A stretch of 64,000 nt of DNA, from assembly GCF_028583425.1 (NCBI RefSeq), contig NC_072792.1, positions 156,804,676 to 156,868,675 of the forward strand. The letters are read 5' to 3'. Both the position numbers and the translations under genes were made by a program. Positions within the stretch are counted from its first letter, which is position 1. Every line of letters begins with the position of its first letter. The notes under the pieces are model-generated. The model did no database searches. It was not told where the DNA came from and saw only the letters and a list, made by a program, of their open reading frames with translations. This document shows, one piece after another, positions 769 through 31,800 of the stretch. Source of the DNA: Eublepharis macularius (Eukaryota; Chordata; Lepidosauria; Squamata; Eublepharidae).

Positions 769-962
769 GGTTGCCAACTCTTCCTTGTGAAATTCCTGGA
801 GATTTGGGAGTGGAGCCAGGGGAGGGTGGGGTTTGGGCCTCAGCGGGGTATAATTTCATAGTCTTGCCCTCCAAAGCTGCCATTTCCTCTAAGAAATATA
901 GTCTGAAGATCAGTTATAATTCCAGGGGAACTCCAAACCCCAGCTGGTGCCTGGCAACTCTG
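769..962. repeat. short interspersed GC-rich repeat (MITE-like)
   Basis: Resembles a very common reptile repeat with the course GTTGCCAACTC...CCTGGAGATTTGG...CTCAGCGGGGTATAAT...TAATTCCAGGGGAACTCC...GGCAACTCTG. The ends are inverted copies of GGTTGCCAAC/GTTGCC-like sequence, consistent with a non-autonomous DNA element. Family not named. Related fragments occur near 48800-48890 and 60640-60680. Confidence 0.5.
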
Positions 963-1179
963 TTGTGGAAGAAACTTTGGCACCTTGTTCATGGTATCGG
1001 ACCGTGGCTTTTACCACAGAAGCAGCTTCTGCTGCAATCAGTCTGCTAATCTTTACAAGGTGCGGGTTCAGTTGCGCTTACGGACCAATTAGATTTCCAG
1101 AGTATAAGCTTTTGAGAGTCAAAACTAAAAATATTATACCTTCACCTTAAATATCTCTGCCACCTTCTGACTGGACGCT

Positions 1180-1840
1180 TCTGCAGCGTGTCACGGCTTC
1201 TTTGCGCAGGGCGTACCGCAGTTGCTGCAGTAGGAAGGCGGGGGGGGAGAATGAGGGCCGCGGCCGTCCTTTTCCACACCGCCTGTCTCTTGTCCTTCGC
1301 GGGTCGGTCGTGTGAGCAGACGTGCAAGCTTTCCCCTCCCTCCATCGATGCGGAGAGGCCTGGCCACCCGCCCCCTCCGTCAGCCGCCGGCGCTGCTCGT
1401 CCCTCCTCCGGGCGGTCCTACCCTCTCCCCCATGTGCGGAACCGGCGCCGCGCTGCGTAGAGGAGGAGGGCGGAGAGGCCTGGCGGCTGCTGCTAACGCT
1501 AACGGTTTTCTTTCAAGCCGCGGGGCGCGCGAGTGGCGGCTTTGAACGGCTTCTGCGAGGAACAGGAGGAGGCCGCCGGGCCCCAGGCGCTTCCCTCAGC
1601 TGAGGAGGCCGGCGGGGGCTTTGGGAAGGGCATGTAAGTGAGGCCGGGCGGGATGGAAAAGGCGGGCTGCCGTCCTATAGGGATCTTCGAAAGCCTCTGG
1701 CGTCCCCTCGTTCTTTTTCTCCTCAGCACAAGGAGTCAACAATAGCTCGACTAGGGGAGGCAGCGTAATACGCTGCGCTTACGTGGGAGTAAGGCCCGCT
1801 GACACAGTGGGGCTTCACCTCGCTATCCTAAACCGCCCTT
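1180..1840 (+). promoter_or_regulatory. SACS: CpG island / SACS promoter region
   Basis: GC-rich, CpG-dense stretch, the only extended one in the window, lying immediately before the first SACS donor site. No convincing TATA box is seen, as is common for broadly expressed CpG-island promoters. The transcription start cannot be fixed from sequence alone. Several open frames of 60-90 codons across the island are a by-product of high GC content and resemble no protein I recognise. Confidence 0.8.
1461..1633 (+). other. SACS: SACS exon 1 (5' UTR, ends in AT of start codon)
   Basis: The 3' edge is set by a consensus donor GTAAGT at 1634-1639. Exon 1 ends ...GGGCAT, and the next exon (3622) starts GTCGGCAAGG, so splicing gives ATG TCG GCA AGG GTA ACT (MSARVT). 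In this frame the last stop is TAG at 1458-1460, and I see no ATG between it and 1632. The split ATG is therefore the only in-frame start ahead of the conserved ubiquitin-like exons. The base at -3 is G, favourable for initiation; +4 is T. The left edge given is only the last in-frame stop; the true exon start is unknown. The human N terminus is six residues longer. Confidence 0.65.
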
Positions 1841-4800
1841 CTAAATCCATTGAGGGTGTAACGTTCAGGGTGTAAGCTTTCCAGAGTCAGAGCTCCCTTC
1901 TTCACATACCTGAAACTCTCTGTTTAGGATTGTGCTGTTAATTCCCAGGAAATGCGACCCCTTCAGGATTGGGCTTCTTATACCTTGCAGCAAAAACCAG
2001 CCCAGGTCCTGCCGGGGCTATCAGATGTATGAACATGGACAGTGAGGATTAGGGAGAGCTCGATATTTGTCTCAAATTATTCATCTGATACTTTTGCTGC
2101 TTTTATGGCTATTAATAGTTCTCTACTTTTTTTTTTTTTAAAGTCCATAGCTCTTGTTTTTTAACGCTTATTTTATGTTTGGGTGCCAGCACTCCTGCTT
2201 TTAAAAAAATGGTTATATTTTATCTATATTATGTTATTAGTTAAATTGTTTTTTTAAAAATTCCATGCTGCAGATTTCCTTGAGGGTCATCTTGCAAGAG
2301 AATGAGGGGTGAAAGTGATACAAATAAAGTACAGTTTCAAAGATCTCCCCACATTCCCATGTGCATATGCATAAGTGTGCACATACATCTTTACTGTTCA
2401 CTGCAGGACAATGTAGACTTCAGTCTATGAAGGCTTTTGCCACAATGCATTTGTTACTCTTCAAGGTAGCACAGGATCCATCCCCCATCCTGTTATCTGT
2501 GTTTTGCAACTGAAAGTGGGGAATCTTGAGGAAGGGATGTGTATTGCAGCTGCTTTTTGATCAGGGTGGAATACCATGCACTTTCTCCCCCCTACCCCCA
2601 GCCCCCAGTGATTTGTTAACATATGGAGAAAGTGACAGGTGCAAGCAAAGCCAAGAGCATATTCAGGATAATAGCTGTGGATTGAAAGAAATTGAAGGGC
2701 AATGAAGAAATGCCTTCCTGCCAAGAAACCTCACATTAGAAGGAAAAAGAATTGCTCTTAGGGGAAAAATGAATATTCCATAATATTCCATAATGAATAT
2801 TTCCCCTCAAAAAGGTCTAGAAATACATATTTCATTCACATTAGTGAGTTGTCTGAGTCTCCTCTACACGTCCCTGGCTAGGAATTGCAGTGGTAGTTTG
2901 CACTGAGAATTATAATAAGTATGTAATTATTAATTAGGCAATTTTTAAAACTACAAGTATCAAAATACAATTGTGTAAATCTCTGTAAGCGCTGGTCATT
3001 CTTTGTTAAAAAAAAAAGTACAGAGCTGATTAAGGCTCCCATAAAGCAACTAAAATGAGCAAAGAGTGGAACCTTTCCAACAAAAGGCTAAAGCGATTGA
3101 GCCTTTTAGTCTAGAAAAGTGTGGGATGGGATATGATGACAGGGTTTTATTAAGTTATGAGTAGTGTAGAAGTGTGAGAAGACCCACCCCTCACATAAGA
3201 ACTTTGTCATTCAATGAAATTGAAGAAAGTAAGTTCAGGGCAGGCAAAAAAGAAAAGAAGTGGCACTTAATCATATTAGTGGATATTAGTATTACAGGAC
3301 CATCTATATCTCTCCCCCCAGCACCTAATAAAAGGGGACAGCTATGGCTATCATGCCTTTCTTGGTGTGTGAGATTCTCTGATTGACCATTGCGCAGGTT
3401 GTGGACTAGATGGTCTTTTAGTCTGATTGAGTAACACAGTTTTTATGTACTGGTACAGCCTATGAAATATTTATATGTCTGAAGAATTCTGTGAGGTTTG
3501 AGAGGCTGTATATGCTAAGTATGAACAACAGAACAATTAAAATATTGTTCTGCTTGGTAATGTACTGTATTCTTTTGCTATTTATTCAAATCCAGCTTCC
3601 TTTGATTTCTTGATGGTATAGGTCGGCAAGGGTAACTGTGCTTCATGACTATGTGGGCTGCAGGACATTTGAGGTGCTACCTTCAGTGTCTGTTGGAGGC
3701 ATCAAAGAGTTAATTTATCCAGAAACAGGTTTTCCAGTAAGTGAGCAGTGTCTATACCACCATGGAAGAGAGGTAAGCTTCCTCATCTCTTAGAACTTCT
3801 AAACTGGGACCTAGGCTCCCTTTGACATTCTGCTATTGCAAAATAAATGAATTTACATGAGAAAGCTGTGAGAGTGTATATTCCAGACATAATTAAAGAT
3901 GCTTTTTTTGATTCATGAATGTCTAAAATGACTTGTGGCCAACCTGCTTCCTTTTGTTTGCCCTGTTGCAAGATCTCAGATAGAATGGTATAGAATCTTA
4001 GTGTCCTGGGGCAGTGAAGCACTTCTCAGAAATGTTGTGCGCTAATTGAGCAGTTGTGGTCTGTTTCCCTGCCCTGAGCACAGGAAGATCAGAATTCTTG
4101 AAGTCTTAAGCCAGTGATTCCTGATGGGGTGTCCTTAACAGGTGCTAGTGTGTTTAATGGTGCCAACTTGATTCTTGGGTCTTGGAGATAAAACTCAAAA
4201 GGTCAATGGAACAAGAAAAACAAAATGAATAGGGTTGCTCCCTTCCAACTGATTGACTAGTGAATGGCTGAACTCATTCTGCACATTACGTCCATGTGCT
4301 CTCAGCTTTGCCATAGGCTCAGGCTTTCTTACATCTATGAGCTTTATAATCCTTCCCCTTTGGTCATGCACATAGTAAACTTACCCATTTATTTGGGAAA
4401 TGAAACCATTTGTCTCACTAGTTGCGGTTATGGTGAGGAGCAGCATATTCAAGAATGCTCAACATCTAAAATCTCCTTTCATTTCAGTTACCTGACTTCA
4501 TCAAGATTGAGGACCTTCAGACTTCCCAGAATCATGTGTTTCTAGACCTTTTGTCAAAGGGCTTGAAAGGAGGAGGTACGGTAAATACCATAAACCATTC
4601 CTTCAACTGTTGCCCCTTCCATTTTCCTCTTTTCTCTGTTACTACTATGTTTAGCGTTTTAACAATTTCAGTGGTCGTATATACAGTTGGAACATCTTTT
4701 TGCAGAACTTTTTGGACCATGTGTTATTGTAGTGTGTAATAAAACAGTGACTGGTTTTTGTTTTGAGAAAGGTTGATTGTTCAGTATATGCTGGCAAGGG

Positions 4801-7800
4801 AAGAGGGGAGGGCTTCAGGGGCTTGTGAAATTTTATACACAAGAATGGGGTCCTCAGATTGCTAAACATTGAAAATTTCTGTTTGAGAGAGTTTGTTGGT
4901 TTGGGTTCTTTGAACTGCCACCAAAACTTCATTGAGCAGTCCTCAGTGTTGTAAAGAGGCTGATTTGCAGGCATGGAAAGTTACAAATAGTTTGAAAGTG
5001 TAGTGTAGCTTGAATGTTTGTTTATTTTATTTATACCTCGCCTTTGTCCTCAATGGGGATCCAAAGTGGCTTATATCATTCTCCCCTGTGAGGTAGGTTA
5101 GTCTGAGAGTGTGTGAATGGCCCAAGGTCACACAGCAAGCTTCCATGTTAGAGTGAGGATTTGAACTTGGGTCTTCCTGACACACTATCTACTGGATTTG
5201 AGTCTAGTGGCTCCTTAGAGACCAACAAGATTTTCAAGGTTTAAGCTTTCAAGAGGCAGAGCTCCCTTCTTCATACTTCTTCACACTGAGTTGAGTGTGT
5301 AGTTTTTACAGGTGACTGACCAGGCAGACAGTGAAATGATGGCAAAAAAGTAGTAATAATTGTAGTAAAGTATGGTCTGCATTGTGTTATACACTAAATC
5401 AAATAAATAATTTTGGGCTGGCTCCGCACTAACATTTCCATGGGTATAAGGATTTCTGTACATGGAGCATAATTCTTTGCCTCCTTCCTCCTATGGCAGC
5501 CTGAAATGCCCCTATTCCTTGGGGTCCCTTCTTCCCCAAAATAGGATTTCACGGGTAGAGGGGAAATGAACTCTGTGGGTGGAAATCTTTGCACCCATGA
5601 AAACATCTAGTCTGGATCCAAGCCTATATCTTTTTAATGAGAATTTTTAATGAGAATTTTAGTTGTATGCTGAGATATAGTTACAGCATACATTAATATG
5701 ATTATTATGCTTTGAATTGGATTTGTATTGTGTACGAGTTATTAAAATAAATAATTCTACAAGAGTTTATTTTATTTTTTGCTGAACTTACTTTAAAAAT
5801 AAGGTATGACTTTATATGGGGTATCCAAATGCTATATACCTTTAATAATAATACAGCAGAAAACCACCAGTAAACTCCTTCAAATATAATGAAACAGCAG
5901 TTGATTTCATTAAAACTATATTCTTAGGGTGCTAGTGTTATTATTATAGCATAAAGTTTAATGCTGCAAAGGTTAGTCTTTGCTGTTCTACAAGGCTCTT
6001 GTTCTGCTGTTATAGACAGCTAGCTGCTTCTCTAGAGTAATTTCATCAAGCGTGTTGTAAATTAAAATAAGTTTTGAATGAAGGCATGCAGACAACAGAT
6101 TTATTGATTGATCTTTCAGCAGTGGGTATGTATGGAATTCTGGGGGTATGGCCCAATGGAACTAGAGAGAATACTTGAGTGGTAGAATCAATTGGGACGG
6201 TCTGGGTTGTGCAGGGTTTTTTTTTGTTTCCCCATTACATTGTCCCGCATTCATGCTCCCATCTGTAAGTAACCTGTATTTTTTCTCTAAAAGAAATGCT
6301 TTCTTTAAAAAAAAAAAAGACAAAAATCTTTCTCACCATCTTTTTAATGTGTCCAGAAGGGAAGGGATGCCTTCGGTTTCAGTGGAAAGGAATGCTCCCT
6401 TCATTCTCCCCTCATCTACATTGTCACATTAACTTATTCTTTTGTTTTGTTTTTGAGTGCTGAGCAATGTTTTTGTTTTGTTTTCTTTTGAGTGCTGAGC
6501 AATGGTAACAGCACTGTTTGTTGAGCTATGAAAATACAGAGTTGTATGTGTGTTTGTATTCGTAAGCAATACATAAGTCTTGCATTACTGAAATAGAAGG
6601 ATTGGGTAAGGCAAGGATTCACAGCTTACTGCCATTCCTGTAACCAAAAAACACATCCATGCTTACTGTGGTGCTTATACTAACTATGTGAGATTCTTGA
6701 CACAGAGAGCCAAGCTACAAGTGACGAATTACACTTGCCATTCACTTGCTCTCCACTTAGTGAGAGCAAGAGAACAGAGGAATACACGTGAGTCTGTTCA
6801 CTAGCCAGGCAAGTGTAATTCGTCACTTGTAGCTTGGCTCAAAGAGAGGGGAGGGGATTGGCCCTATTGCCTCGCTCAACTTAGAAAGAAGCCAATGCAT
6901 GGGGAGAGGGGTGGCCCCAGTTTAGAACTGCAGAGATGCTTCGACACAGAGGAAGAGAGGAATTTGCTTTCCTAGAGCTGAAATGTAGCTGAAATCCGTA
7001 GGGCACTAATTCACTAGGGAGGATTTATTGGCCCCATTGCCTTGCCCAGTCTAATTAAGTAATTCATTCATTAATCAGGAATGGGAGGGAGGACTGTCCT
7101 CATTGCCTTTCCCACAGCTTAAATGTTGCTGAATTCATTACAAGGAGGCAAGTGTGGAGAGAGTGGCATTGTGTTGTTCCTTATCCCTACTGTTCAAACA
7201 TGGAGGTTAAAAAACCAAGCATTTCAGCTTTGAGCTATTCCCAAGCAGCAGCATGCATGCATTCTGAAATAAAAAAAGAAAAGAAAAGGTGGTTGGGAAA
7301 TCATGACGGTGGCCTGACATATTGGGAGGGGGTGGGTGGGGGAATGTACATCTGGTGTGAAGAACAAACAGGGCAAACTATATTAGGACCATGGATTGCC
7401 CTGCTGCATCTGAAATCTCCATAGCAAGTGTGAATTGACCAATAGTTGTGGTAGTTGTGGTATGATTACCATGCCCCACCCCTTGGGTGGAAGCAGACCT
7501 GGTTGTAGTATCAATGAGCGATTTGTGCAGTGGTAACCACTGTGGCTGCCCAACCAGGGCAATTGAATGGCAAAGTTGCAGGCAGCCACCTCCGTACAAG
7601 TTGCCTGGCTGGAAAAAAATCTGAAAACAGTAAATTTGCTAATGTGACAAAAATAACAATTATATGTGTTTCTGAAACAGTTTTGTCTCTTCTGCATTTT
7701 TAGGCCGTTTTGGACAAACGACACCACCACTTGTTGATTTCCTTAAAGATATTTTGAGAAGATATCCTGAAGGAGGACAGATTCTTAAGGTAAAGCATAA

Positions 7801-10800
7801 AATATTTTAAAGTAAATATTATTTAAAAGTTTTACTGCATTAAATATCTATTTAGTTAGCCAACGTATCTTCCTTAATAGCCATTTTGCCAGCATTTTAT
7901 CTCTTTGTGATACATTAAGTTGACTTCTCATTGTGTATTAAAGAAACAATTAATTTGTTTGATGAAAGGGGTGAGGGCAGAGAGGGACAGTGCATCAAAG
8001 ATACATTGCTGAATCCTCTCCTTTCCTGATAAGGAATACAATGAGAAAAGAAAGGGGGACCTTCTTGTTTCTTGTCATGCCTGCGACAGTGAGGTTTGAA
8101 TACACATTTCCAGAGCACCTGGGAAATGGACAGAAGGCCAGTGATTCCATGTATTACTTGGGCCTCCGGTCTTTGCACTGGTTTCCTTTTCTGGCAGCAC
8201 TGGGGCTGTAGCACTCTGACATTGTTACCTCTGAATGCATGGAGCCAATGGAAGGATTTCCCTCGGCTGCCATGGCCTCTTTTCTCCTTGCTCCATCACC
8301 AGCCTTAAAAACTTGGTCTCTTTAAAAAAATTCTGGATGCTTCAGATATCTTGATTGCTTTTAGAGCCTGATGGAGGTAAAGAAATGACAGCAATACATG
8401 GCAGAAGGAAAAGGGGGGGGGGAGCAAAAACAAGGAGAAGCTGAAGCAAGGCTGAGGGGCTTGGGTTTGTGGAAGGAGATGGAACGGTTCTCTCTCAACA
8501 TGGCTCATCAAATGTTTTGTGTTTTAAATGTTTTCGTTGAATGTCATTGCTATTTTTATATTTGTATTTTATTGATTTATGATAATTATGGGGGAAAGTG
8601 CTATCAAGTTACAAGCGACTCACAGCAACTCTGTAGTTTTTTCAAGGCAAGAGACATTCAGAGGTGGTTTGCCATTGCCTGCCTCTGCGTAATAACCCTA
8701 GACTTCCATGGTGCTTTTCTATCCAAGTACTAATCAGGGCCAACCCTGCTTAGCTTCTGAGATCTGATGAGATCAGGCTAACCTGGGCCATACAGATCAG
8801 GACTTGTGATAATAGTAAATAATAATGTCTTGTTTGGCCCTGAATTGTAAACAGTTTGAACACCTAAAATGTTTAAGGGGCAGAGTTGATTGGTTTTTTT
8901 TGGTGGGGGGATGGACTCCTGGTATGGCTACTCTACTACTTCAGCTGGCATTGAGGTGTTAATTGATATCATTGCTTTCATTTTTCCTTCTGTGCTTCAG
9001 CATTATGATTTAGATAACAATTTTAATCTCCTCTGGAGGTCTTTCATTCATAGGGTCACCATAGGTCAGAGGTGACTTGACAGCACATAACATACAAGTT
9101 GGGGAAGGTGGGTTTATTCAGATTCCTGTAGTTTTAGTAGCTGATTATTTAGGAAGGCTCTGCTAGGTTTGCTCCGACTGCTGCAGGAATAGGGGACAGA
9201 GAAGCAAATAACATCGTCATAAAATAGAAGAGGTAAGCTGCCACTTACACAGTGCCATTCTTGGTTTCATGGAATATTTTACCCTCTCAGTTGACTAGCA
9301 TGCCAATCCTAAATTGATGATTTTTTGTTGATCTGGTTCAACCTTTTTATAGTTCATTAAATAACATATTTGTTTTACCTTTTTTTCAGGAATTAATTCA
9401 GAATGCAGAAGATGCTGGTGCCACAGAAGTTAGGTTTCTATATGATGAGACTCAGTATGGGACAGAGTCTCTCTGGTCTAAAGACATGGCTCAATACCAG
9501 GGTAAATATTTCTTTTTTTTCAGATCCAGCTTTGTTCCTAGCTTATTTGCCGTTTGGTGAAGAAGTGATGTACTTTGAATCAACATTAGCGCAAAAAAAC
9601 TTTGTAGTTAAGTTTTGTCTAGATTTTGTGTTTTACATACAGTTATTTCATGTATAATCTAGGGATATACACCCAAATATTTCCAGTCTGAAAATATAAA
9701 TGAAAAATACTATATCAGTATTTTTCAGGTATATTCTGGTCATCTGAAATGGTATTCAGGATTTGAGAATATCAAATTCTGGGATTTTAGAATCCTGAGG
9801 ATTTTAGAAAAAAGATGGTGGCGCAGACAGGAACAGGCTCGTCAGCTCCCACCATCTTTTACTTTTAACAGCTTCCCTGTTACTTTTAGCCAGCATTAAC
9901 TTAACTTTTTAATTGACAAAGCTGCACCATTGCTTTTCATCACCTTCACCCCATACCCCGTGCAAACAACTGAAATTGGAAGGAGAAGAGAGGAAACAGC
10001 TAACCTGCAGAACAGTTGGAAGCCGGGTGAGCGAGCATAGTGAAACAGAGTAAGGCTGAGCGAAACTGAGCAAGGCAAGGTGGAGCTGCCCTGAGCCCGG
10101 CTGACGCAGGGGAAACCTGGTGGGGGAACGGGGCTGAGTGAAGTCGAGTGAAGTTAAGCTAAATTACTTTGATATTCGACGCCTGAGTTAAGCACTGACA
10201 AGCCGAGGCTGACGCCCCATGCGGAGCCAAGCGGCTGAGTTTGAGCAGCCAGGTTGAGGGTTGAGTTGAGCCGAGCTGTGCTGCTGAGCTGAGCGACCGA
10301 ATTGAGCTGAGCCCCACCGCTGATACTCCAGTGCTATCCAGTGCTGAGAGGTGCGTTTAAAAGAGATGTTCGCTGCTACCTGATTACCCAGGTGCTGGGA
10401 GTTGCAAGGCCTTCCCAGGCAGTTCTGGAGGTTTGGAAGCTGGCGTTGAGCTGAGGAGCTAGAGGATGGCGTCTAAGAGAGGCGCCCTGGCTGAGTGTTG
10501 AAGTGGAGTGGAAGAGAAAGAACATGCTGCTCAAGTCACTAAAATTGGGTTACAAACCTGCTGGACTGGAGGAGAGGTTGGTAAGAGAAGGTGTGGGGTG
10601 AGCAGCCTGGGACCATGGGACTTGTGCGGGGGACATGGTGTATTTGTGTGCCTTGCTTGCCCCCCCCCCCCAGAAGCTGGAATATCTCTGCACTGGCCTG
10701 GAGACAGCTGGGTGGCCTGAGAGACCATCGAAGGCCCCTAGAGGTTGTCGGGGTTAGCCAACCGAACTCAGAATCAGGCTGAGTTCTAGATGGCCTAGAG

Positions 10801-13800: not shown

Positions 13801-16800
13801 TTGGTCTCCCTCTTGCAGGGAGACTGCCAAATTAGAAATTTGGCTATTAGCTGTGAGACTTTTGGGAGGTTTTTTACAGACAAAATCTTGTCCCTCCGCC
13901 ACAATCTGCCGGCCACAGTTAATTCAGTAAGAGAACTGGAGACCCCTTGGCCATCTTCTGGTCTGATTTTAGATCACTTCAGTCTGGTCTCCCAGGAGAA
14001 AGTTGACAGGATCCTGCAGCTGGTGAGGCCCACTATGTGCTCCTTGCCCTTCATGGCTAGATAAGGCCAGCGTAGATGGGCTGAGGGCCCCACTGGAGAC
14101 TATTATTAACATGTCGTTGAGCTCTGGGTTTTTTTCCAGACCGTTAAAGGAAGCTGTAGTGAAGCGTCTCTTGAAAAAGCCAACTTTGGACCCCACCGAC
14201 CCATCCAGTTACTGCCCAGTCTCGAACCTCCCGTTTCTGAGTAAGGTGATTGAGTGGGCGGTGGTGGAGCAGCTTTAGACTTTCTTGGAAGATGCATCGG
14301 TCCTGGACCCATTTCAGTTCGGCTTCTGACCAAGGCCATGGGACTGAGACAGTGCTGGTCGCCCTCACAGACGATCTCCATAGGCACCTGGACTGAGGCG
14401 TGTCAGCGCTGCTGGTGCTGTTGGATCTCTCAGCAGTGTTTGACACGGTCGACTATAAATTGTTGACCCACCGTCTTGCCGATGTGGGGATACAAGGGAC
14501 TGCCCTGCAGTGACTTGTCTCTTTTCTCCACGGTCGGGGACAGAGGGTGGTGCTTGGGGAGAGGTTATCAGCATGCCAAACATTGGTGTGCAGCATCCCC
14601 TAGGGGGCAATACTCTCCCCTTTGTTGTTCAATCTGTATATGTGCCCCCTCACCCAGCTGGTATGGAGTTTTGGACTGGGTTGTCACCAGTATGCGGATG
14701 ACACCCAGTTGTAACTGTTGATGGATGGACAGCCTGGCTCTCCCCCTGTAGCCCTAACTAAAGCTTTGGAGGCCATGTCTGGATGGGTGAAGCAGAGTAG
14801 ACCAAAGTTGAATCCCATGAAGACGGAGGTCCTGTACTTGGGCCGTGGGGTGTCGGGGGGGGGGCGGAAATCCAGCTCCCAGCCTTTGATGGGGCAGCAC
14901 TTGTGCCCGTTCATTGGCCAGGAGTCTTGGTGTGACGCTGGACTCCTCCTTATCAATGGAGGCCTAGGTCACAGCAGTTGCCCGGTCTGCTTTTTTCCAC
15001 CTTCGGCAGGCCAGACAGTAATCCATGCAATGGTCATCTCCAGATTGGACTACTATAACTTGCTCTACACATGGCTTCCCATGAGTCTGACCCGGAGGTT
15101 GCAGCAGGTCCAAAATGCTGCTGCGCGTGTCCTTGTTGGCACACTATACAGGGACACTTAACTCCAACCTTGCAGCAGCTGCACTGGTTCCCCATGGAGT
15201 TCCGGATCAGGTTCAAGGTGTTGGTCTTAACCTTTAAAGCCCTAAATGGACTGGGACCAGCATACCTGAGGGACCGCCTCTCCCTGTATATGCCCTGGAG
15301 GGTGCTGAGATCTGCAGGTAAACACCTGCTGGTGGTCCCTGGCCCCAGGGAGGCTCAACTGTCCTTGACGAGGGCCAGGGCTTTTTCGATCCTGGCCCCG
15401 ACCTGGTGGAACTCTCTGTTGGAAGACACCCAAGCCCGCCAAGATCTTTCATCTTTTCAGCGGGCATGCAAAACAGATGTTCCTCCAGGCATATGGTTGA
15501 GGTCAACATTAAATCCATCAATGAGCCTCCCTGTTGGTCTCCTACCTGGGGGGAGGGGAACTATATAAACCATCCCCCACACATGAGCAGCCATAAGATA
15601 TTGATCCATTCCTCCACATTTTTTATATATGGTGAACTGGTGGACTTCCTGATATGTTTGTGTTTGGAATCTGTGATTTTAGTGTATTTTACTGTATTTC
15701 TCTATTTTTACTTATTATTGTAACCAGCTCTGAGCCCGCTTGGGGAGGGCGGACTATAAATCAAACAGATGATGATGATGATAATCTCAAATATTTATTC
15801 CAAAAAAATCTCTGAAATGTTCAGGAATATCTGGGGCTACTATGTTAAGGATTCCTGGACTTTTCTCTCCTCTCTCAGGGTTTTCTGGCAATGGGAGGAA
15901 GTGGGGAGGGTTCCTCACAATTACACAGCAGCTGTAGAGAATGACTTTTTTTGAGAGTCAGCGCTCCCTTCATCAGATACCTGATGAAGTGAGCTCTGAC
16001 TCTTGAAAGCTCATACCCTGGAAATCTAGTTGGTGTTTAAGGTGCTACAGGACCCGAATCGTCCTCTTCTACTACAGATCAACATGGTTACCCACCTGAA
16101 ACTACCTTTGTTAAGGTGCACATCCATAGTGTAATCTATATACATCCATTTAATTACCAATATGACCTACAATGGGTGTATCCTACCTGCAAGTCAATCT
16201 GGATTGTGGCTAGGTTTAGGTGTACAATGAAAATAAGTTAGAAACCAGTGCTTGGATCATCCAGATGTAATATTCATAAGGCAGAGAGAATTATAAAGTT
16301 AGAAATTATTAATGACTGTTCAAGTTTATCTCAGTATATTCTTTTACAATATTCAGCAGTTACATTCTCCACAGATCAATACATTTATGCTGTATTTCTT
16401 GGATTTTAATATAATGTCTTTAAAAAATTGTAAGTGTACTAAAATTTCTTATTTTGTCTGTATTTATCTATCAGGTCCTGCACTGTATGTATACAACAAT
16501 GCAGTTTTTACCCCTGAGGACTGGCACGGCATTCAGGAGATAGCAAGAAGTAGGAAAAAGGATGATCCTCTCAAAGTTGGAAGATTTGGAATTGGATTTA
16601 ATTCAGTTTATCACATCACAGGTATTTACAGTGAACCTTTTTAAATAAAAGTACATTGGGGCCTTGTACATGTGGGACATGTGCTCCATTGGTGCTCACA
16701 CTAAAAGTTTGCTCTAGATTTAAAAATAGTTTGTTAGTTTGAATAGGCACTGGTTAGTAGGAAAAAAATTAGCATTATTAACAAGGTGGGGTAAAGGAGA

Positions 16801-19800
16801 ATTAACCCACACAGGGATATATGACATGTTGCTGGGCTAATGAAACTCTAAAGATAATGTCAAGCCAATGTAGTTCATGATTTCCTGAAACCTCTTCCTT
16901 GGGTTAAGTGAAAGAGGATCTCCAGAGGTATTCATGACTGTTACGGAGTTTTCAAAGGTGATCAGTGAATACCAAGTTACACTGGCCTAATGCCCTGTCT
17001 TTATATCTTAGGTGAGTAGGGTCTCCATCTTCCTGAGTAATTTGCTTCTACTGCAGCAACAGCAGTCATCCAGTATTTGGAAGACAGGGTTCATCAGCTT
17101 TTAACCTTTCAGGGTAGGTTAACAAATAGGAAGTTTCTGAAACTAGATTCCCTTTGTTATTGTGAACTTGGTCCTTATTAGTTAATTTATGCAAGGCAGC
17201 ATCTCAGTAATTTGGCAATTAGTTACAATATCTGGGAAAAGCTGTCCTATCTCTGAGGAAAACGTTCTTTCTGAGGTGGCTCCTTTTGCTTTGATAGTTG
17301 ATCTTGCTTAAGTTTCTGCAAGAAGGCTGGCACTTCATAAAGCTTGACTCGAGAGGGTTAGAGAGATGTGCGTCTTCCTCACAGCTTTTAGCTGATTTTT
17401 TTCTTTTTGCCACTTAAGTTGGGTGTCTTACTGGTGTCTTACTTTACAGCATAGTAATTAACAAAAGGCTTTTAAAAATGTCGTAGGTTTGTATTTTTAG
17501 ATACTGTTTGTGTGCTGTTCATATTTTTGGCTTTACATTTTGCAGATGTACCAAGTATATTCAGTGGTGACCAAATTGGAATGCTGGACCCACATCAGAT
17601 ACTTTTTGGACCCCGTGAATCAGGCCAATGTTGGAATCTAAAAGATGACAGCAAAGAAATTAATGAACTTACAGACCAATTTTCACCTTTCATTGGTGTG
17701 TTTGGAAGCACAAAAGAAACTTTCAAACATGGACACTTCCCGGGTACATTCTTTCGCTTTCCTCTTCGCCAGCAACCTTCCCAGCTGAGTAGTAATCTAT
17801 ATAACAAGGAGAAAGTTCTAGAATTGTTTGACTCCTTCAGAGCAGATGCAGATACAGTACTTCTGTTTCTTAAATGTGTGCAGGATGTTTCCTTACATGT
17901 TAGGGAAGCTGATGGGTCTGAACGATTAGTTTTTAGAGTTACTGCAAGTGAGAACAAGGCTTTGAAGCATGAAAGGCCCAACTCTATCAAGATTCTGGGA
18001 AGTGCAATAAATCAGTACTGTAAAGGAGTTCCAAGTAACAGCATAACATGTGTGACATACCATATAAACATAATTCTCGAAGATGAGAGTGTTAAAGATG
18101 CACAGAAAACATCTTGGTTGGTATGTAATAGTGTTGGAGGGCGAGGAATATGTAATGAGTTGGATTGCTTGGCCGATGACTTGAAATATATTCCAACAAT
18201 TGGTATAGCTATGTCATTATCAACCAACGAAGAAGAAAAAGGAGCTGTGGCACAGTTTTCAGGAAGAGCATTTTGCTTTCTTCCATTGCCACCTGGTGAG
18301 GAAAGCAAGACAGGTCTCCCAGTTCATGTTAGTGGCTTTTTTGGTCTCACAGATAATAGAAGGAGTATCAAATGGCGAGAGCTTGACCAGTGGCGAGATC
18401 CAGCAGCCTTGTGGAATGAGCTGCTTGTGGCCAACGTTGTTCCAAAAGCATACACAGTTCTCATATTGGAAGCAATTAAACGAATGGAAACTGAAAAGAA
18501 CTCAGATTTCCCTTTGTCAGCTGAGAGGATTTACAGATTGTGGCCTGAAAAGAATAAAATAAGAGTTCACTGGCAGCCAATTATAGAACCTCTCTTGAAA
18601 GAGCTCTTCCAGAATGCAGTTATATACTCTATCAGTGATCACTGGATAAAGGTGGAACAAGTTTATTTCTCAGAAATGGAGAAGAGTTTGGAGTATACCC
18701 AAGCCGTGCTAAACTATCTCCAGGAATCTGGGAAAGAGGTTGCAGAAGTACCAGATAATATTGCAAATGCTGTTGACCTCATTATGTCTGGTACCAAACC
18801 TGTGAAAAAAGTGACTCCTGGTACAGTGCGACAAGTTTTAAGAAAATTTGGGCACACAGGATCCGCTGATGAAAAGCTTCATATCTTAGACTTTGTGCTT
18901 AGCGATGGAAACTACAGTGAGCTTATTGGTCTGGAACTGTTGCCTCTGCAGAATGGGAGTTTTATTTCATTCTCATCATCTGCGTCAGATCAAGATGCAA
19001 TTTACATAACTTCAGAAAGTTATCCAAGGTATAATATGCACAATAGTTTGTTTTACTATGACATAAAGGTTTTATTTAAGTGTTGAACTGTATGGTTTAG
19101 TTTTTATTAATGGCACATCCCTCTGCAAGTAGTAGTAGTAGTAGTAGTAGTAAATAATTAATAATAAACAACATTCAGTTTATATACCGCCTTTCAGGAC
19201 AACTTAATGCTACACGCAGAGTGGTTTACAAAGTGTGTTATTATTATCCTCATAACAATCTCCCTGTGAGGTGGGTGGGGCTGAGAGAGCTCCGAGAAGC
19301 TGTGACTGACCCAAGGTCACCCAGCTGGCTTCAAGCAGAGGAGTGGGGAATCAAACCTAGTTCTCCAGATTAGAGTCCTGCCACTCTTAATCACTGTACC
19401 AAACTGTACCTGCTTGTGTTCTGCTCTAGAATACCTTTGCCTGTATAGGCAGATGGGAATACAGTCTGAAAAGAGGAGGTTTTTTCTAAATTGCAGCCTT
19501 TGATCTAGCAAAAAGTCCACAAATGCCCCTTTTCTGCATGAACTATATCAGAAAATGGCCCTGCTTTCAGTCCTTTAGGGAGGCATCAATGGCTTTCTGA
19601 TATAAGAAGCCATGCCTTGCAACCAACCTACTTTATTCCGGGGGTGGGGGGGTGGGGAGAGAAAAGAAGCCTGGAAAAAGGGGGTCAGGAGCATACAGAG
19701 TTGAATAATGAGCTCTTGACCTGACAGTGCAGGACTTGGAGAAACAAGAGCACATTCTCCAAGGTTTAGGGGTGGCACAATATTCTGCTTGTTATGCAAA

Positions 19801-22800
19801 GCTAACTTGCTTCAAGGCTGTGTTTCTGGATCTATTCTTGCCAATTGTTAGACGTATCACTCATATGGCTAAAGGACGGGCTACAGTTGATTAGGGCTGA
19901 AGGGTTGGCGGCAGTGGTTTTCAGCCCTGTGGGCTGGGACTGAGAAGTAGATTGTGACTTCTAAGGCAGCTTACAAAATAAAAATAATAAAACATTAAAA
20001 AATGGTAATTAAAAATCCAGCCCAGAATAAAAACATAGATAATAAAAAGACCATTGACAGCTTAAAATAATAGTTTTCAAACTAAAATAATGTTAAAAAT
20101 AATCAACCCCTCAATTAAAACACTGAGTGAACAAAAATATTTTTGCCTGGCACCTGAAAGAAAACAACAAGACCAGGGATCCACAACTGTAAAGTTAATT
20201 ATGTATATTTCTCAATTTATCAATTTTAGAAGTGCAGAGTGCAAAAGTGCTAGTGTGAATAAATACATAATTAATTATACAATATAAATACAAAAGTACA
20301 AAAATACAGAGTCCATTCATTTACAAACATGGAATTATTTACAAATCTTCACTGTCTGTAACTCATTCTAGTCTTTGTAATGCAGAATGCCAGTGATAGT
20401 AAAGGAAGCCGGTAGGTAGAGAGTTTTGCAAGATGTTATTCATTCACAGTCCAAGAACTTGAATTAATATTTGAAAAGACGCCAACGGGAATATGCAGGC
20501 AAATTATCATTAACCCGTTTCGTGAGTAAAAAACTCACTTCATCCTGGGCATAAAGTAATTTGGGCCGGACTTTTTTACTCACGAAACGGGTTAATGATA
20601 ATTTGCCTGCATATTCCCGTCGGCGTCTTTTCAAATATTAATTCAAGTTCTTGGACTGTGAACGAATAACATCTTGCACAACTCTCTACCTACTGGCTTC
20701 CTTTACTATCATTGGCATTCTGCATTACAAAGACTTGAATGAGTTACGGACAGTGAAGATTTGTAAATAATTCCATGTTTGTAAATGAATGGACTCTGTA
20801 TTTTTGTACTTTTGTATTTATATTGTATAATTAATTATGTATTTATTCACACTAGCACTTTTGCACTTTGCACTTCTAAAATTGATAAATTGAGAAATGT
20901 ACATAATTAACTTTACAGTTGTGGATCCCTGGTCTTGTTGTTTCCTTTCGGTTTGTATACCGGGGTTGCCCATTGTTTTTCCTTTGGCACCTGAAAGAAA
21001 GCAATTTAGGTGCAGGTAAGCCTCGAGACAGGGCTTTCCCCTTCTTGCAGGTGGTTTGCAAGACCAGGAGGAGGAGGGAGAAGAGGATCAGGACAGTGTG
21101 GGAGAAAAGACTAACAGAGCTGATGGCAAATCTACATTTGTATCCAGATAATGTGTGAGATAGCCATGAGGTGTTTATACAGCCCAGTATATCTATAAAT
21201 ATTTAAAATGAAAAAAGTAGAAACTTGATCAGCATTAACTGATGTGCAATTCCTGCATTTTATATGGGGGAAAGAGAAAGTAGCTTGAAAAGCACAGTGG
21301 GTTTAGAAGCAGATCCCTCTTCAAAGTCTTTCAGGGCCACTGATGTTGATGATGCTCCAGGCAGCAGGGGAGATTCCAAGAGACAAAGGCAAGGGAAAAG
21401 CAAGGGCCAAAGGCAAAGAGCCAACAGGGAAGAGCTTGAGGATGGCACTTCCCATCCCTCTCTGCTCCAGTTCATCTATCCTCAGTACATTTTCATAATT
21501 TTGTAATTTCATTCTTAGCATTTGGTGGACCTCTGACTGATATAATTATGTATACACAATATATAAACTGTAATTACTGGTGGATTTGAAGGAGTTACAG
21601 TTACTGTCAAAACTCAGTGGGGGTATGGAAAAGCATATTGTATAGCCTAGTTGAGTGTTCATATCACAGTTAATTGTATGATGGTAGTGCAGTGGAATGT
21701 GTGTGGCCGCAGCAGAGGTGGCTTGTTTTATGTTAACTGAGAAGTTCTTGACAGAAAGAAAACTTTCTGCTTTTGAACAATAACATACATTATTTATTTG
21801 ATTAATATTCTGTTTTTAATGACATACTAGGTCCCTCTTCCCAGGTCTTGACGGAAGATTGCTTGCTGATGACCTGAAGCCTCAAGTTCTCTCTTCTTTG
21901 AAGGAAGCTGCCAAAAGTAGAGGTAATTTTTTTCAGTATGTGTCATCATAGTAACAGGAGGGTCCTGTTGAAATGAAGTCTTAGATGATCAACTTTTGAG
22001 GAAGGATATGATGGGTTTTTTTCAGGTAACGGATTGTAAATCACCAGGATCAAAGCATGATTTAAATCATTAATTCATTTCCCCCGTTTGTGCATCAAAT
22101 GCTTTTTATAGAAAAGTGTTTCCTGATTGCATATGATAACATTTAAATCTCTGCAGTTCCACAGATTTATGGGCACTTAAGATTTCTTAATTGGTGATTT
22201 CTGCTATGTAATCTCTCCCTCTGCAACCCACTGAATGCCTCGAATTTGGTTCCTAGGGATCACTGAGCCCTCAGGAATAGCTTAGGAGATGCGAGGTGGC
22301 AGCAGTGGGAATCATTGCCTCCTGTTAAGAGATGCCCTTAAGCCTTTGGAATGTTTGATTAGGTACAGGGTGTTGATTTACAAGTAGATGATGAAAAGTT
22401 AGGATGTTATTTTTTACTTCGAGATTTTCTCTAAGAAGAGAATAGGATGAAGAGTAATGTTCTGACCGGTTAGGTCTCAGGCTCATGTTTCTTTTCCACT
22501 TATCTCACTGCAGTGAAAACCCAACCTATGTTTAAACATGGGATCCCTGCTTTGGAAGATTATTCTTTCAGGGTAGGTAGAGACATTGGGTTCAAATGAA
22601 TGCAGAATCTTATGGTCCATTTATGCCCCCTTCCTGAGTGAAAGGGAGGAGTTGGACTGTGTGTGGTGAAGTCTTAGGCCTGGTGTTCCTGATTCAGTTG
22701 CCTGATACAGGGCATAGAATCCGCTATTGGGGATTCTCAGCAGCAGTTAAAATATACACATTTGCATGGTTTTTAATATTTTCATTGCTGCTGAGAATCG

Positions 22801-25800: not shown

Positions 25801-28800
25801 TAAGTAGTAAAGAGAAAACTGTGTAGAAGAAACATACCTTGAGAATGGTGGTCACTTGTGCTCTTAAATATTTATAGGTGTCCTATAAAAGTGTGTTGGG
25901 GGGGTTGCTCTTCAAATCTTGCTTTTAGGTTGTTCCAGGGAGAAAAAATTCTAAAAGAAAGTGAGGTGGCATGTAGGTTTGTAGTGGTATATTAAAAATC
26001 AGTTGATAAGTGGAATTATATAAATATGTATATTGTTAATTGCATGGTTGGATTGCTAGTTGCATGTTTGATATGAAACTGGATTACATTTATGTAGGTT
26101 TTTTTAGTTTAAAAAGTAAGAAAAGAGATTGTATAATATAAAAATGTTATGCAACCTGCAATATGTAATAATTTCCAATTAAATTGAAGAGATAGAATTA
26201 ATTTATTTTGGTTGCTGTGTTATTGCCTGAATTTTGCTTGTGTTTCTTGTCCTGATTGTGACCATGTTTCAGAACTTAGGCAGTACTTCAGTGTTTTAAA
26301 AGGTGACTAAAGTGTATCACAGGTATTTTAATTTGTAGATGAAACTGTTAATTTTGACTTTCTTTAATAGTAATAATTTTCTAGTATACTACTAAAGTAT
26401 TGTAAAATATCTGCAGTATAATTTTTCAAGATATATGTCTTGTATAGAACTATTACATATTAGGGATTATGTATTCCATCGCAGTAGGTTCCTTTAGGAT
26501 AGCTAAGGTTATGCTAGATTAGACAGATAAGTATTGTATTTATTGTATCAAATGTTAACCAGGAAAACCCTACCTAACAGTGTTTCAATGTTGTGATGTT
26601 CTGTTCTTGGGATTTCTTAGAGTAACTAGAGCTTGGAACTGATGTTTCCATCTGTTCTAGCTTGTAAATCTGTGGACAGGGTTTTGTATTTTGTTTTTGT
26701 TTAAGACTTGTTGATCAAACAACTGTACAATAACATGATTGTTGATCAAAATGTACAATAACATTTACGCTTAAGTTACTTGATTTGTTATAATAAATGT
26801 TTATCATCTCTGTCAATATACCAAATCATTCGTTTTGTGTCACTTAGTCCCTTCATCTGCAAAGTATACCCTGAAAAGGTTTTAAATTTAGTACCGTTTT
26901 ACACATAGATCTATTTAATGATAGAGTATCTTTCCTATCCTAAGCAGAGTTCCTTAAATAAAGGACCCATATTTCTTTACTAAAGATAAAATCGGGCTCC
27001 ATACGAATCTTTGTTCCTCAGCAGCCAACACATACAAAGTGCTTTCTAGGTACTTTGTCCTTAATATAATTAAGTATATGGCCTTATTGATATTCTTATT
27101 TTCAGCAGAGGAACATGCACAGATCAGATGCGTACTGGTGAAACGAACTATCGGTGCATGTTTAAAACAGTGGTAAAGTAGTTTTCTGATGAAATAGTAG
27201 TTCTGCCATCTGCCTTGCTAAATAAAACGGATTCACTTGTTAAGGCTTCAGAGCAGATACAAGGGAATAGTTCGCTATTGGGGCATATATGCAAGCATCT
27301 TCCCCTTTCTCTTGTTGTAATACAGGCATGTCACACACAAACAATTACTCCTTGATTAGAAAAGGACAAAGGCTGCTTTCTCACACTTTTAATGCACTTT
27401 AGCATTGTGTGAAACAGGAAAATCCACTTGCAAATGACCACTGAAGTCCATTGAAAGTGTATTGTCTAATGTGTGTGAAATCAGCAAAAGGTTTTTGTCT
27501 AAACTGTTTGCCTACTCTCTTATGGCACTTTGTGGACTGTAGAAACCCCTAGCTTCTAGTATGGCCTGATACATAGTTTTCCTGGTGAGCATAGTAGAGC
27601 AGGAATGGTTTGCTTTGTTTCACGGGGTTGGAATGTGACAACTAAAGATGATCCACAGTGATCCGGCTTCCCAAGTGTACTTAATGCTATTTCACATTGT
27701 AATCTGATCCAGATAATCAAATTACAATAGAATATGATGACTTTTTAGTAAATGGCTCCAAAAAACAGTTTGTGATATTTTTTTCCTTTTCATCTTTCTG
27801 TTCTACAAAAGTATTCTTAATGTTATTATTTAGTTTGAATAGTTTTATTTTTTATTTCAGGAAGACTGTGCACTCAACTACAACTTCTGAATCCTGAACG
27901 ATTTGCACGACTTGTCAAAGAAGTTTTGAATACTCTGTGGCCTGATAGAGATATAACAGTGCAGTGGTTCCCACATTCTGAAGATCAAAATCACCCACCC
28001 GTTTCATGGCTTAAAATGGTATGGAAGAACCTGTATTTACATTTCTCTGAAGACTTATCCTTGTTTGATGATATGCCACTTATCCCAAAGACATTACTAA
28101 GTAAAGACCAAGAAGTGGTAGAACTTATTAGACTGAGGACTCCATCTTCAGTTATTCTAGATGATGGATCTGAAACACAACTTCCGGAATTTTTAGCTGA
28201 CATAACCGAGCAACTTGGTGGGATTGTGATTAAGGAACTGGATCCTTCCATACAGCATCCACTTTTAAAAAAATATGTACATGCCCCATTGCCAAATGTA
28301 GTTTTGCAAATAATGGAAAAACTTCCTTTACAGAAATTAACGGATCATGTTGCATCATTCTCCATATCATACAAAAATGCCCTTAGGAGCTTCCTTGCTA
28401 GTTTAACTGATATTAGTGAAAAAGAGAAAAGAATCATTCATGAACTAGTGATATTTAAGAAAATTGAACATTCGCTTGATGAAGAACATTCTTTTACTGC
28501 ATTGAAAGGTTGTAAAGTACTGCATCACACTGCCAAACTTCCGCCTAATGTTAAACTGTCTGTTTCACTAGTTGACAGTAGTGATGAAGCTACTATTCGT
28601 TTAGTAAATATATTGAAAATAGAACAGCTAAAGACCACTGATTGCATGAAGTTTATTTTAAAAGACATTGAAAATGACTTTTATTCTACTGAAGAAGCAA
28701 CAAAAATTATGCTGTGGTTTCTGGAAAATCTGACTTTCCTCAAAAATGAAAATGCAGAAGTGTTGGATTGGCTGACCCCACTAAAATTTATTCAGATTTC

Positions 28801-31800
28801 AGAAGACAAGATGGTATCAGCTAATGAACTTTTTGATCCTGAGATAGAGGTATTACAGAATCTGTTCTATGGTGAGGAAGACCACTGCTTTCCTCCTCCT
28901 GTGTTTAAAACATCTCCAGATACTCTTCATTCTTTGAGATTAATAGGCTTAAAAAGTGAGAACAACTTGGAAGAGAGAGATATTTTGAGTATAGCACATA
29001 AAATTGAAAGCTTGAAGGACTGTGCAAGCACTGATCAGGAGGAACTTAGAAGAAAAGCCAGAACTTTGTTAACCATTTTGAACAAAAGCTCTTCATTACT
29101 GCATTCACCTGAAACAAAGGCCATGCTAAAAAAAATTAAGTGGATTCCAGTGTGCAAGGAAAGACCTCCAAATTACCCAAATTCATTAATTTGGAAAGGT
29201 GATCATTGTAGTCTGTGTTCGCCACCTGAAATGTGTGATTTATCCCAGGCAACCTTAGTAGGTTCCTCAGTTCCCCTTGTAGAAAGTGTCCGATCAAGTG
29301 TTGAAAAAGCACTAGGGATTTCAATTAAACCTAGCATCAAATCAGTGTTAAAACATTTTAAAGTGGTAGTAGACTGGCATAGTTCCAAAAAATTTAATGA
29401 TGAAGATTACTATCAGTTTCAGCACATCTTGCTTGAGATTTATGGATTCATGAATGAACACTTAGATGAGGGTAAAGAGGCTTTTAAAGCCTTAAAATTT
29501 CCCTGGGTCTGGACTGGTAAAACTTTTTGTTCACTCTCTCAGGCAATAATAAAATCAGCTTATGATCTTGACCTCCAGCCATATTTGCATCATGTGCCGA
29601 AAACTATGGCCAAATTTCATCAGTTGTTTAAATTCTGTGGGTCAATCGAGCTGCTGAGCCCAGACCATGTCTCCATGGTCATTCAGAAAATATATCTGAA
29701 AAGTGAACATTCTCTTACTGAAGAAGAGAGTAAGCAAAATCTTCATATCATGTTGAATATTATTAGGTGGTTGTACAGCTGCCAGATTCCTGCAAGTTTA
29801 AATACACCTGTTCCTTTATATTCTAGCAAAAAACCATACAGACTTGCCATGAAGCCAATTCATGAGTGTTGCTACTGTGATATCAAGGTTGATGACTTAA
29901 ATGATTTGCTTGAAGATGCTGTTGAACCAATAATTCTGGTTCATGAAGACATACCCATGAAAACTGCAGAATGGTTGAATGTACCTTGTCTCAGTACCAG
30001 GTTGATTAATCCAGAAAATATGGGGTTTGAACAATCTGGGCAAAGAGAACCCCTCACTGTAAGAATTAAAAACATTTTGGAGGAATACCCTTCTGTATCA
30101 GATATCTTCAAAGAGCTTCTTCAGAATGCTGATGATGCTAATGCAACTGAATGTAACTTTTTGATAGACATGAGGCGAAATAATGACATAAGAGAAAATC
30201 TTTTGGATCCTGGAATGGCAGCTTGTCATGGACCAGCCCTGTGGTCTTTCAACAACTCTGAATTTTCTGACTCTGACTTCCTAAATATAACTCGATTAGG
30301 AGAGTCTCTAAAAAGAGCCGAGGTTGACAAAGTTGGAAAATTTGGCTTGGGTTTTAATTCTGTTTATCATATCACTGATATCCCCATCATTATGAGCAGG
30401 GAGTTTATGATCATGTTTGACCCAAATATCAACCACCTCAGTAAACATATAAGAGATAAGTCCAATCCTGGGATCAAGATTAATTGGAGTAAGCAGCAGA
30501 AAAGACTTAGAAAATTCCCTAATCAGTTCAAGCCATTTATAGGTGTGTTTGGTTGTCATCTTCCATTGACCGTGGAGGCTCCTTACAGTTATAAAGGGAC
30601 ACTTTTCAGATTGTCTTTTAGAACTCAACAGGAGGCTAAAGTAAGCGAAGTCAGCAGTACTTGCTACAATACTGCAGACATATATTCTCTTGTAGATGAG
30701 TTTAGTATTTGTGGACACAGGCTGATACTCTTTACTCAGAGTGTAAACTCTATGGTTTTGAAATATTTGAAAACAGAAGAAAGTAACCCAGGTACTGCAC
30801 AAGATACTGTGACTATTAAAAAAAATCTGTGTTTGTCCAAAGCAATAACTACCCCTGTAATAAGTATTCTAAAGGAAGCTGCTAAACTCATGAAAACATG
30901 CAGTAGTAGTACTAAAAAGCTTCCTACAGAGTCACCAAAGTCCTCGTGCATATTGCAAGTAATAGTGGAAGAGTTTCATCATGTATTTAGGCGGATTACT
31001 GACTTGCATTCTCCAGTTTTTAGGGGATCAGAAGATGATACACCTTCTTTTTTAGAAATGGCTAAATCGGGCCAGACAAAAAGACCTGCTGATGAGCTGC
31101 CACAAAAAACAGTAGACACTACAATGTGGCTTATATGTTCTTGCATGGATACTGGGGAAGCCTTAAAATTTTCATTGCATGAAAGTGGACGAAGGCTAGG
31201 ACTTGTGCCTTGTGGTTCAGTTGGAGTTATGTTGTCTGAAACTCAGGATCAAAAATGGACTGTGAAGCCCAATTGCAGCAATTTAGGAGAAGTATTTTGC
31301 TATTTACCTCTTCGAATCAAAACTGGTCTACCTGTTCACATTAATGGTTCCTTTGCAGTTACATCAAATCGAAAAGAAATATGGAAGACTGATACAAAAG
31401 GAAGGTGGAACACAGTTTTTATGCGGCATGTCATTGTAAAAGCATATTTGGACACTCTTGTAGTTTTACGCAACATGGCAGTCTGTGGAGAGCTAGAGAA
31501 TTACAGTTACTGTGCAGTGTGGCCTGATCCTGACATGGTGCATGATGATTTTTCAGTTATATGTCAAGGATTTTATGAAGAAATAGCTCATATGAAAGGC
31601 AAAGAAGGAATCCGAGTGTTCTCTGATGGTTCTTCCTGGGTGTCCATGAAGAATGTAAGATTCTTAGATGATTCTCTGTTGAAACGTCCAGACATTGGAG
31701 CAGCTGCCTTCAAGATTTTTCTCAAATACCTTAAAAAAACTGGCTCAAAAAATCTTTGTGCTGTAGACCTTCCTTCATGGGTCAAAGCTGGCTTTGAAGA

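What the first reader, a model, noticed from the sequence alone, without database searches (positions are those of the whole stretch)
1632..3624. Sacsin start codon assembled by splicing (AT|G)
Exon 1 ends GGGCAT before a consensus GTAAGT, and exon 2 starts G TCG GCA AGG GTA. The spliced product is ATG TCG GCA AGG, directly continuous with conserved sacsin sequence. Between the in-frame stop at 1458-1460 and this point there is no other ATG, and exon 2 has none, so without the split codon the ubiquitin-like domain could not be translated. Unspliced or mis-spliced mRNA loses the start codon outright, tying initiation to removal of intron 1. Gene predictors that need ATG in one exon would miss or shift this start.
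Basis: partly seen in the sequence, partly recalled or inferred. Interest (0 to 1): 0.7.

Follow-up and report, generated by a model that had tools for sequence, protein, structure and literature searches.

The report
Sacsin start codon split by intron
In this reptile the start signal of the sacsin gene appears to be cut in two by an intron and made whole only by splicing, a rare but already known arrangement that still needs RNA evidence.

Summary
In detail: AT at 1632-1633 lies directly before a donor GTAAGT, and the ubiquitin-like (Ubl) exon starts at 3622 with G TCG, so splicing reads AUG-UCG into sacsin. The donor is at the 99.5th percentile of 2,515 GTs and is the only strong one in the CpG island. 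The acceptor is boxed in by an in-frame TGA at 3611 and homology from 3632, so the upstream exon must end in phase 2. One weak rival (ATG 2025, donor 2042) sits at chance level, and nothing like the human start exon was found. The rest of the gene reads open (4,571 aa). Corrections: the nearest in-frame stop is TAA 1500-1502, not 1458; unspliced RNA keeps the AUG but reads AUG-UAA, a start-stop. By alignment, the human AUG sits six codons upstream of the same intron, in a separate exon. Introns inside start codons are a known rare class (PMC1626468). No transcript or second reptile gene was available, so this is a well-supported prediction and a new member of a known kind.

The parts
1201..1800 (.). 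CpG island, probable promoter and first exon
   Evidence: five 200-base windows with CpG observed/expected 0.85-0.93 and GC 0.60-0.72
1503..1633 (+). exon 1, 3' part: 5' UTR ending GGGCAT; first base of the exon unknown
   Evidence: no ATG in any frame from 1435 to 1631; in-frame stops TAA 1494 and 1500
1632..1633 (+). first two bases (AT) of the split start codon
1634..1639 (+). 5' splice site GTAAGT; unspliced, ATG TAA reads across 1632-1637
   Evidence: score 5.10, percentile 0.9948; ATG TAA printed
1634..3621 (+). intron 1 (1,988 bases), phase 2 within the start codon
3620..3621 (+). 3' splice site AG
   Evidence: 89th percentile with a 10-base pyrimidine matrix, 98th with a 20-base one; bounded by in-frame TGA 3611-3613 and homology from 3632
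3622..3772 (+). exon 2 (= human exon 3): G of the start codon plus 50 codons, first part of the Ubl domain
   Evidence: match to sacsin Ubl 5vsx, E 2.4e-10
4488..4575 (+). exon 3 (= human exon 4), second part of the Ubl domain
   Evidence: spliced exons 2-3: Pfam ubiquitin E 6.9e-8; 5vsx E 1.5e-20
7704..7789 (+). exon 4
   Evidence: lizard sacsin 5v47 match
9390..9501 (+). exon 5; holds the first in-frame ATG after the split one (9486, Met142)
   Evidence: position counted by hand
16475..16621 (+). exon 6
17546..19028 (+). exon 7 (= human exon 8)
   Evidence: Pfam SACS E 2.2e-26 on the surrounding ORF
21831..21922 (+). exon 8 (= human exon 9); donor end chosen by homology among three open joins
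   Evidence: tblastn with recalled human peptide, E 1.5e-10; in-frame joins
27861..39415 (+). giant last exon to the stop codon
   Evidence: Pfam SACS E 6.7e-162, HEPN E 1.1e-9; PDB sacsin 3o10 E 1.4e-88

Best explanation
This is the 5' end of an open, apparently intact reptile (probably squamate) SACS gene. Transcription starts in the CpG island; exon 1 is 5' UTR except for its last two bases, AT. Removal of the 1,988-base intron 1 joins AT to the G that opens the Ubl exon and makes the AUG, followed by [10 protein letters not shown]. By alignment the intron has the same place and phase as the human intron before the Ubl exon; the codon that is Arg7 in human is the initiator here. Shown by sequence: the junction letters, frame, stops, homology from VTVL on, and the open downstream gene. 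Inferred: use of the donor in vivo, the transcription start, absence of a further 5' coding exon, and the human border of that exon. In unspliced RNA the AUG persists but is followed at once by UAA, so ribosomes starting there would terminate; this is predicted, not shown.
For: Spliced frame open and continuous. Only strong donor in 1200-1720. Any exon joined to the Ubl exon must end in phase 2: an in-frame TGA at 3611-3613 limits the exon on the left, VTVL homology at 3632 on the right, and both AGs between them (exon starts 3622, 3631) open with G in phase 2. Of the GTs in 1-3560 with a compatible phase and an upstream in-frame ATG, three score above 1.5: 1634 (5.10), 398 (3.66, also AT|G, outside the island) and 2042 (1.59) (GC donors were not examined). 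The number of ATG-bearing hidden-exon candidates in 1640-3560 equals chance: 1 observed, 1.03 expected in 200 shuffles. No match to a back-translated METKENR exon with up to 3 mismatches, 0.45 expected by chance. Start context has G at -3. Predicted length 4,571 aa against 4,579 in human: six of the eight missing residues would be the human N-terminal ones.
Against: No transcript, peptide or second reptile genome was available. Human SACS has one noncoding exon and then a coding exon before the Ubl exon, so a homologous short exon could be missed; one of the five donors of this gene that I scored is as low as 1.73. T at -1 is unusual for a donor (recalled). The acceptor at 3596 scores about as well as 3622 (4.58 against 4.78). 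A second AT-preceded donor-like site lies at 398, and AT precedes 5 of 115 donor-like sites of score 3.5 or more, so coincidence is unlikely but not excluded.
Confidence: 0.8

Rival explanations
1. As in human, exon 1 is wholly noncoding and a short exon with its own ATG lies between 1634 and 3621 (or upstream of the window), ending in phase 2; AT|G at the donor is coincidence or a second isoform.
For: Human arrangement: one noncoding exon, then eight coding exons before the giant one, residue 50 in exon 3; sacsin Ubl chain 5vsx reads ETKENRWVPVTVL (that it is human and that Met precedes it is recalled). One candidate: ATG 2025 to donor 2042, giving MYEHGQ|SARVTV with possible acceptors at 1727, 1949 or 1991. 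Real donors of this gene can be weak (1.73 at 16622).
Against: The candidate is what shuffled sequence gives, its donor is weak (1.59), its ATG has C at -3 and its peptide does not resemble METKENR. No METKENR-like DNA in the window at up to 3 mismatches. The AT|G junction in the right phase at the only strong donor of the island would be unexplained.
Confidence: 0.14
2. Translation of this mRNA starts elsewhere: at a non-AUG codon in exon 1 (open from 1503), or at Met142 in exon 5, giving a protein without the Ubl.
For: The frame upstream of AT|G is open from 1503 to 1631. The first downstream in-frame ATG is at 9486.
Against: An AUG with G at -3 would be available in spliced RNA and, if transcription starts after 1434, would be the first AUG in any frame. 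The Ubl frame is open and Ubl-like, which suggests that it is translated.
Confidence: 0.04
3. The 5' splice site at 1634 is not used; the apparent split codon is a chance match.
For: A second AT|GT donor-like site (398, score 3.66) occurs nearby without apparent meaning.
Against: 398 lies outside the CpG island. A donor of score 5 or more occurs in 14% of 2,000 shuffles of 1201-1720, and one preceded by AT in 1 of 2,000.
Confidence: 0.02

Closest known systems
Introns disrupting the start codon (phase 1 or 2 at codon 1), Nielsen and Wernersson 2006, PMC1626468 (section 6 and passages seen)
   Same: Intron inside the ATG; here phase 2, AT|G
   Different: The paper, as far as I saw it, only notes that they are 'relatively rare'; no example was compared here
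Start-codon introns: phase 0 directly after ATG, over-represented in ribosomal protein genes (PMC1626468)
   Same: First intron at the initiation codon
   Different: Those leave the ATG whole; here it is divided
Human SACS exon 2 / exon 3 junction (PMC3629688 passages; 5vsx sequence, species recalled)
   Same: Homologous Ubl exon ending at the same place (before residue 58); same position and phase 2 by alignment
   Different: Human AUG is six codons upstream (METKENR), in a separate exon; here the codon at the junction is the AUG. The human start of exon 3 is inferred by alignment, not read from human DNA
Start-stop (AUG-stop) minimal uORFs (PMC5972666 passages)
   Same: Unspliced RNA reads AUG UAA
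   Different: The cases described are in mRNA leaders; here it would exist only in intron-retaining RNA
Yarrowia lipolytica introns with donors after A, T or G of the start codon (42 introns; PMC13309789 passages)
   Same: Donor inside or directly after the start codon
   Different: Yeast; the 42 pool all three positions

Membership tests
SACS (sacsin) gene | N-terminal Ubl, SIRPT/SACS repeats, J-like and HEPN domains with a giant last exon | tested here: met
   Pfam ubiquitin, SACS, HEPN; DnaJ E 0.011, below its cut-off; PDB chains 3o10, 5v47, 5vsx named sacsin and 1iur, listed as KIAA0730 protein. In some searches polyubiquitin chains rank above 5vsx only by summing up to nine weak stretches; the best single-stretch match is 5vsx
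SACS (sacsin) gene | open reading frame through the exons | tested here: met
   Three joins at exon 8 / giant exon stay open (4,569, 4,571, 4,574 aa); the 4,571 one keeps the human-like [13 protein letters not shown]
Split (phase 2) start codon | AT at exon end, G at next exon start, in frame with the coding sequence | tested here: met
Split (phase 2) start codon | splice junction 1633/3622 used in mRNA | not testable with these tools
   no transcript collection on hand
Split (phase 2) start codon | no other in-frame AUG upstream in the mRNA | tested here: inconclusive
   none in exon 1 after the last in-frame stop; one chance-level candidate exon in intron 1; sequence left of the window not seen
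Split (phase 2) start codon | conserved in related species | not testable with these tools
   the collections are prokaryote, viral, phage, plasmid and metagenome; the one scan made, genome contigs, found no relative

The most novel reading that the evidence does not exclude
In this lineage the sacsin start codon stands on an old phase-2 intron that in human lies six codons inside the protein, with the separate start exon lost here or gained in the mammal line. As a general rule, any AT|G start codon with a GTRAG donor becomes AUG-UAA or AUG-UGA when the intron is kept, so such genes carry a built-in block on translating unspliced RNA.
Probability: 0.5. Interest if true: 0.4.

Novelty: new member of a known kind. 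Interest (0 to 1): 0.28.

Why it matters
If right, it fixes the N-terminus of sacsin, a protein of human ataxia, in a reptile, and marks a place where automatic gene models may put the start wrongly or drop the Ubl. The AT|GTRAG = AUG-stop rule can be tested across genes with split start codons: does retention of such introns lower protein output more than retention of other 5' UTR introns? Otherwise it is an uncommon but ordinary gene-structure detail.

Tried and rejected
Looked for a human-exon-2 counterpart by degenerate pattern: 0 matches in 64 kb with up to 3 mismatches, 0.45 expected by chance, so absence is weak evidence. Listed the GTs in 1-3560 with a compatible phase and an in-frame ATG (GC donors not examined) and compared hidden-exon candidates with shuffles: chance level at three thresholds. 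Considered the acceptor at 3596: it would put ATG GTA TAG and no in-frame AUG before the Ubl (read by eye). Considered the acceptor at 3631: it keeps AT|G and frame (MVTVLH) but scores far worse (-5.63). Looked for a relative of the Ubl region in prokaryote genome contigs in case of vertebrate contamination: none confirmed; viral contigs were not scanned. Literature: of the nine paper searches answered, six looked for split start codons, start-codon introns or start-stop elements. The useful papers were PMC1626468, PMC13309789 and PMC5972666. PMC12513839 and PMC10182648 turned out irrelevant (passages), and PMC10602964 added nothing (passages). In the titles and abstract starts listed I saw no paper on a split SACS start codon. 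The supplement of PMC3629688, which the main text cites for the lizard and other SACS genes, was not opened (cap 0, not tried).

Full report
What is there. The window carries an open sacsin (SACS) gene on the + strand. The giant last exon holds SACS and HEPN domains (Pfam E 6.7e-162 and 1.1e-9) and a sub-threshold DnaJ match (E 0.011), and matches solved chains 3o10 (sacsin) and 1iur (listed as KIAA0730). The exons encoding the first SIRPT repeat match the PDB entry 'Lizard sacsin' best (5v47, 541 bits, against 517-525 for three other sacsin chains), in keeping with a reptile; no other reptile chain was in that list. Exons 2-8 and the giant exon, joined with AT at 1632-1633, read to a single stop. 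Three joins at exon 8 stay open (4,569, 4,571, 4,574 residues); I take 4,571 because it keeps the human-like peptide there. These eight exons equal human exons 3-10 in number (ten exons, one noncoding and nine coding; PMC3629688 and PMC8745260, passages only).

The junction. Exon 1 ends GGGCAT and intron 1 opens GTAAGT; the Ubl exon opens G TCG GCA AGG. The other donors above 1 in 1200-1720 score 1.49 and 2.34. Five of the seven internal coding donors of this gene were scored and lie between 1.73 and 6.31, so the exon 1 donor is among the better ones despite T at -1. The acceptor at 3622 is middling with a 10-base pyrimidine tract (89th percentile) and good with a 20-base tract (98th percentile). 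The acceptor at 3596 scores about the same.

Why the upstream exon must supply the start. In the sacsin frame an in-frame TGA lies at 3611-3613, and homology with the solved sacsin Ubl begins at VTVL, codon 3632. The acceptor must lie between these points; the two AGs there (exon starts 3622 and 3631) both leave G as the first base in the same phase. Exons 2 and 3 hold no in-frame ATG; the next one is Met142 in exon 5, after the Ubl. So the AUG must lie in, or be completed by, the upstream exon.

Alternatives in the DNA. Of the GTs from 1 to 3560 that could join in phase and have an in-frame ATG upstream without a stop (listed; GC donors not examined), 1634, 398 and 2042 score above 1.5. 398 also makes AT|G but lies outside the CpG island. 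2042 would give MYEHGQ-SARV; one such candidate is what shuffled intron gives (1 observed, 1.03 expected, 62% of 200 shuffles have at least one). At looser thresholds the counts are also at chance (1 against 2.8; 5 against 4.5; 100 shuffles each). A back-translated human METKENR exon has no match with up to three mismatches. These tests lower the odds of a hidden start exon but cannot exclude one, because a short exon with weak sites is hard to see.

Comparison with human. The sacsin Ubl chain 5vsx reads ETKENRWVPVTVL...; that it is human, and the Met before it, are recalled. The alignment with the window is ungapped from VTVL to GRE. PMC3629688 assigns residue 50 to exon 3 and residue 58 to exon 4, which fits the E|L border here. 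If exon 3 has the same length in human (151 bases here), its first full codon is Trp8 and Arg7 is split in phase 2. The intron is then homologous and the reptile AUG stands where human has Arg7, six codons inside the human protein. The human start of exon 3 is inferred, not read. The predicted protein is eight residues shorter than human (4,571 against 4,579); six of these would be at the N-terminus. The three residues between junction and VTVL differ (SAR, WVP), as would be expected at a free N-terminus.

The nearest in-frame stops are TAA at 1494 and 1500. Unspliced RNA keeps an AUG: AT plus the donor GTAAGT reads ATG TAA GT. This is general: AT|GTAAG gives AUG-UAA and AT|GTGAG gives AUG-UGA. 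A transcript that keeps intron 1 therefore carries a start-stop element, a class known as minimal uORFs (PMC5972666, passages). Whether this matters for sacsin is not shown. The three other ATGs between 1200 and 1640 (1251, 1348, 1432) would make uORFs only if transcription starts upstream of them; the start site is unknown.

Known or new. Nielsen and Wernersson (PMC1626468; [quoted passage not shown] So the kind is known and this is a new member.

Verdict. The interest is modest: a rare but known gene-structure detail, with a neat start-stop corollary and a clear RNA test. Mending the report on checking (length difference of eight, three possible exon 8 joins, the species of 5vsx recalled) did not change these odds.

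Noticed in passing
3632-3772: The Ubl exon is only 28 of 47 residues identical to the sacsin Ubl chain 5vsx (counted by eye), while the next domain is far more alike. The residue at human R50, a Ubl position mutated by Parfitt et al. 2009 as listed in PMC3629688, is Cys here.
   Followed up: partly
1632-1637: Unspliced sequence reads ATG TAA: any AT|G start codon with a GTRAG donor yields AUG-stop if the intron is retained.
   Followed up: partly
396-403: A second donor-like site preceded by AT (AAT|GTAAGC, score 3.66) lies upstream of the CpG island; probably chance.
   Followed up: no
3594-3631: Two acceptors of nearly equal score 26 bases apart (exon starts 3596 and 3622). Use of the first would put ATG GTA TAG ahead of the Ubl and leave no in-frame AUG.
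   Followed up: partly
6707-6840: Inverted repeat with 31-base arms that match by eye (GAGCCAAGCTACAAGTGACGAATTACACTTG and its reverse complement) in intron 3, like a small DNA transposon (MITE).
   Followed up: no
12664-13236: Remains of a LINE-like element with an endonuclease domain (Pfam Exo_endo_phos, E 4.9e-6) in intron 5; by eye the element may run on to about 15.8 kb.
   Followed up: no
56775-57395: Reverse transcriptase ORF (Pfam RVT_1, E 1.7e-27) downstream of SACS.
   Followed up: no
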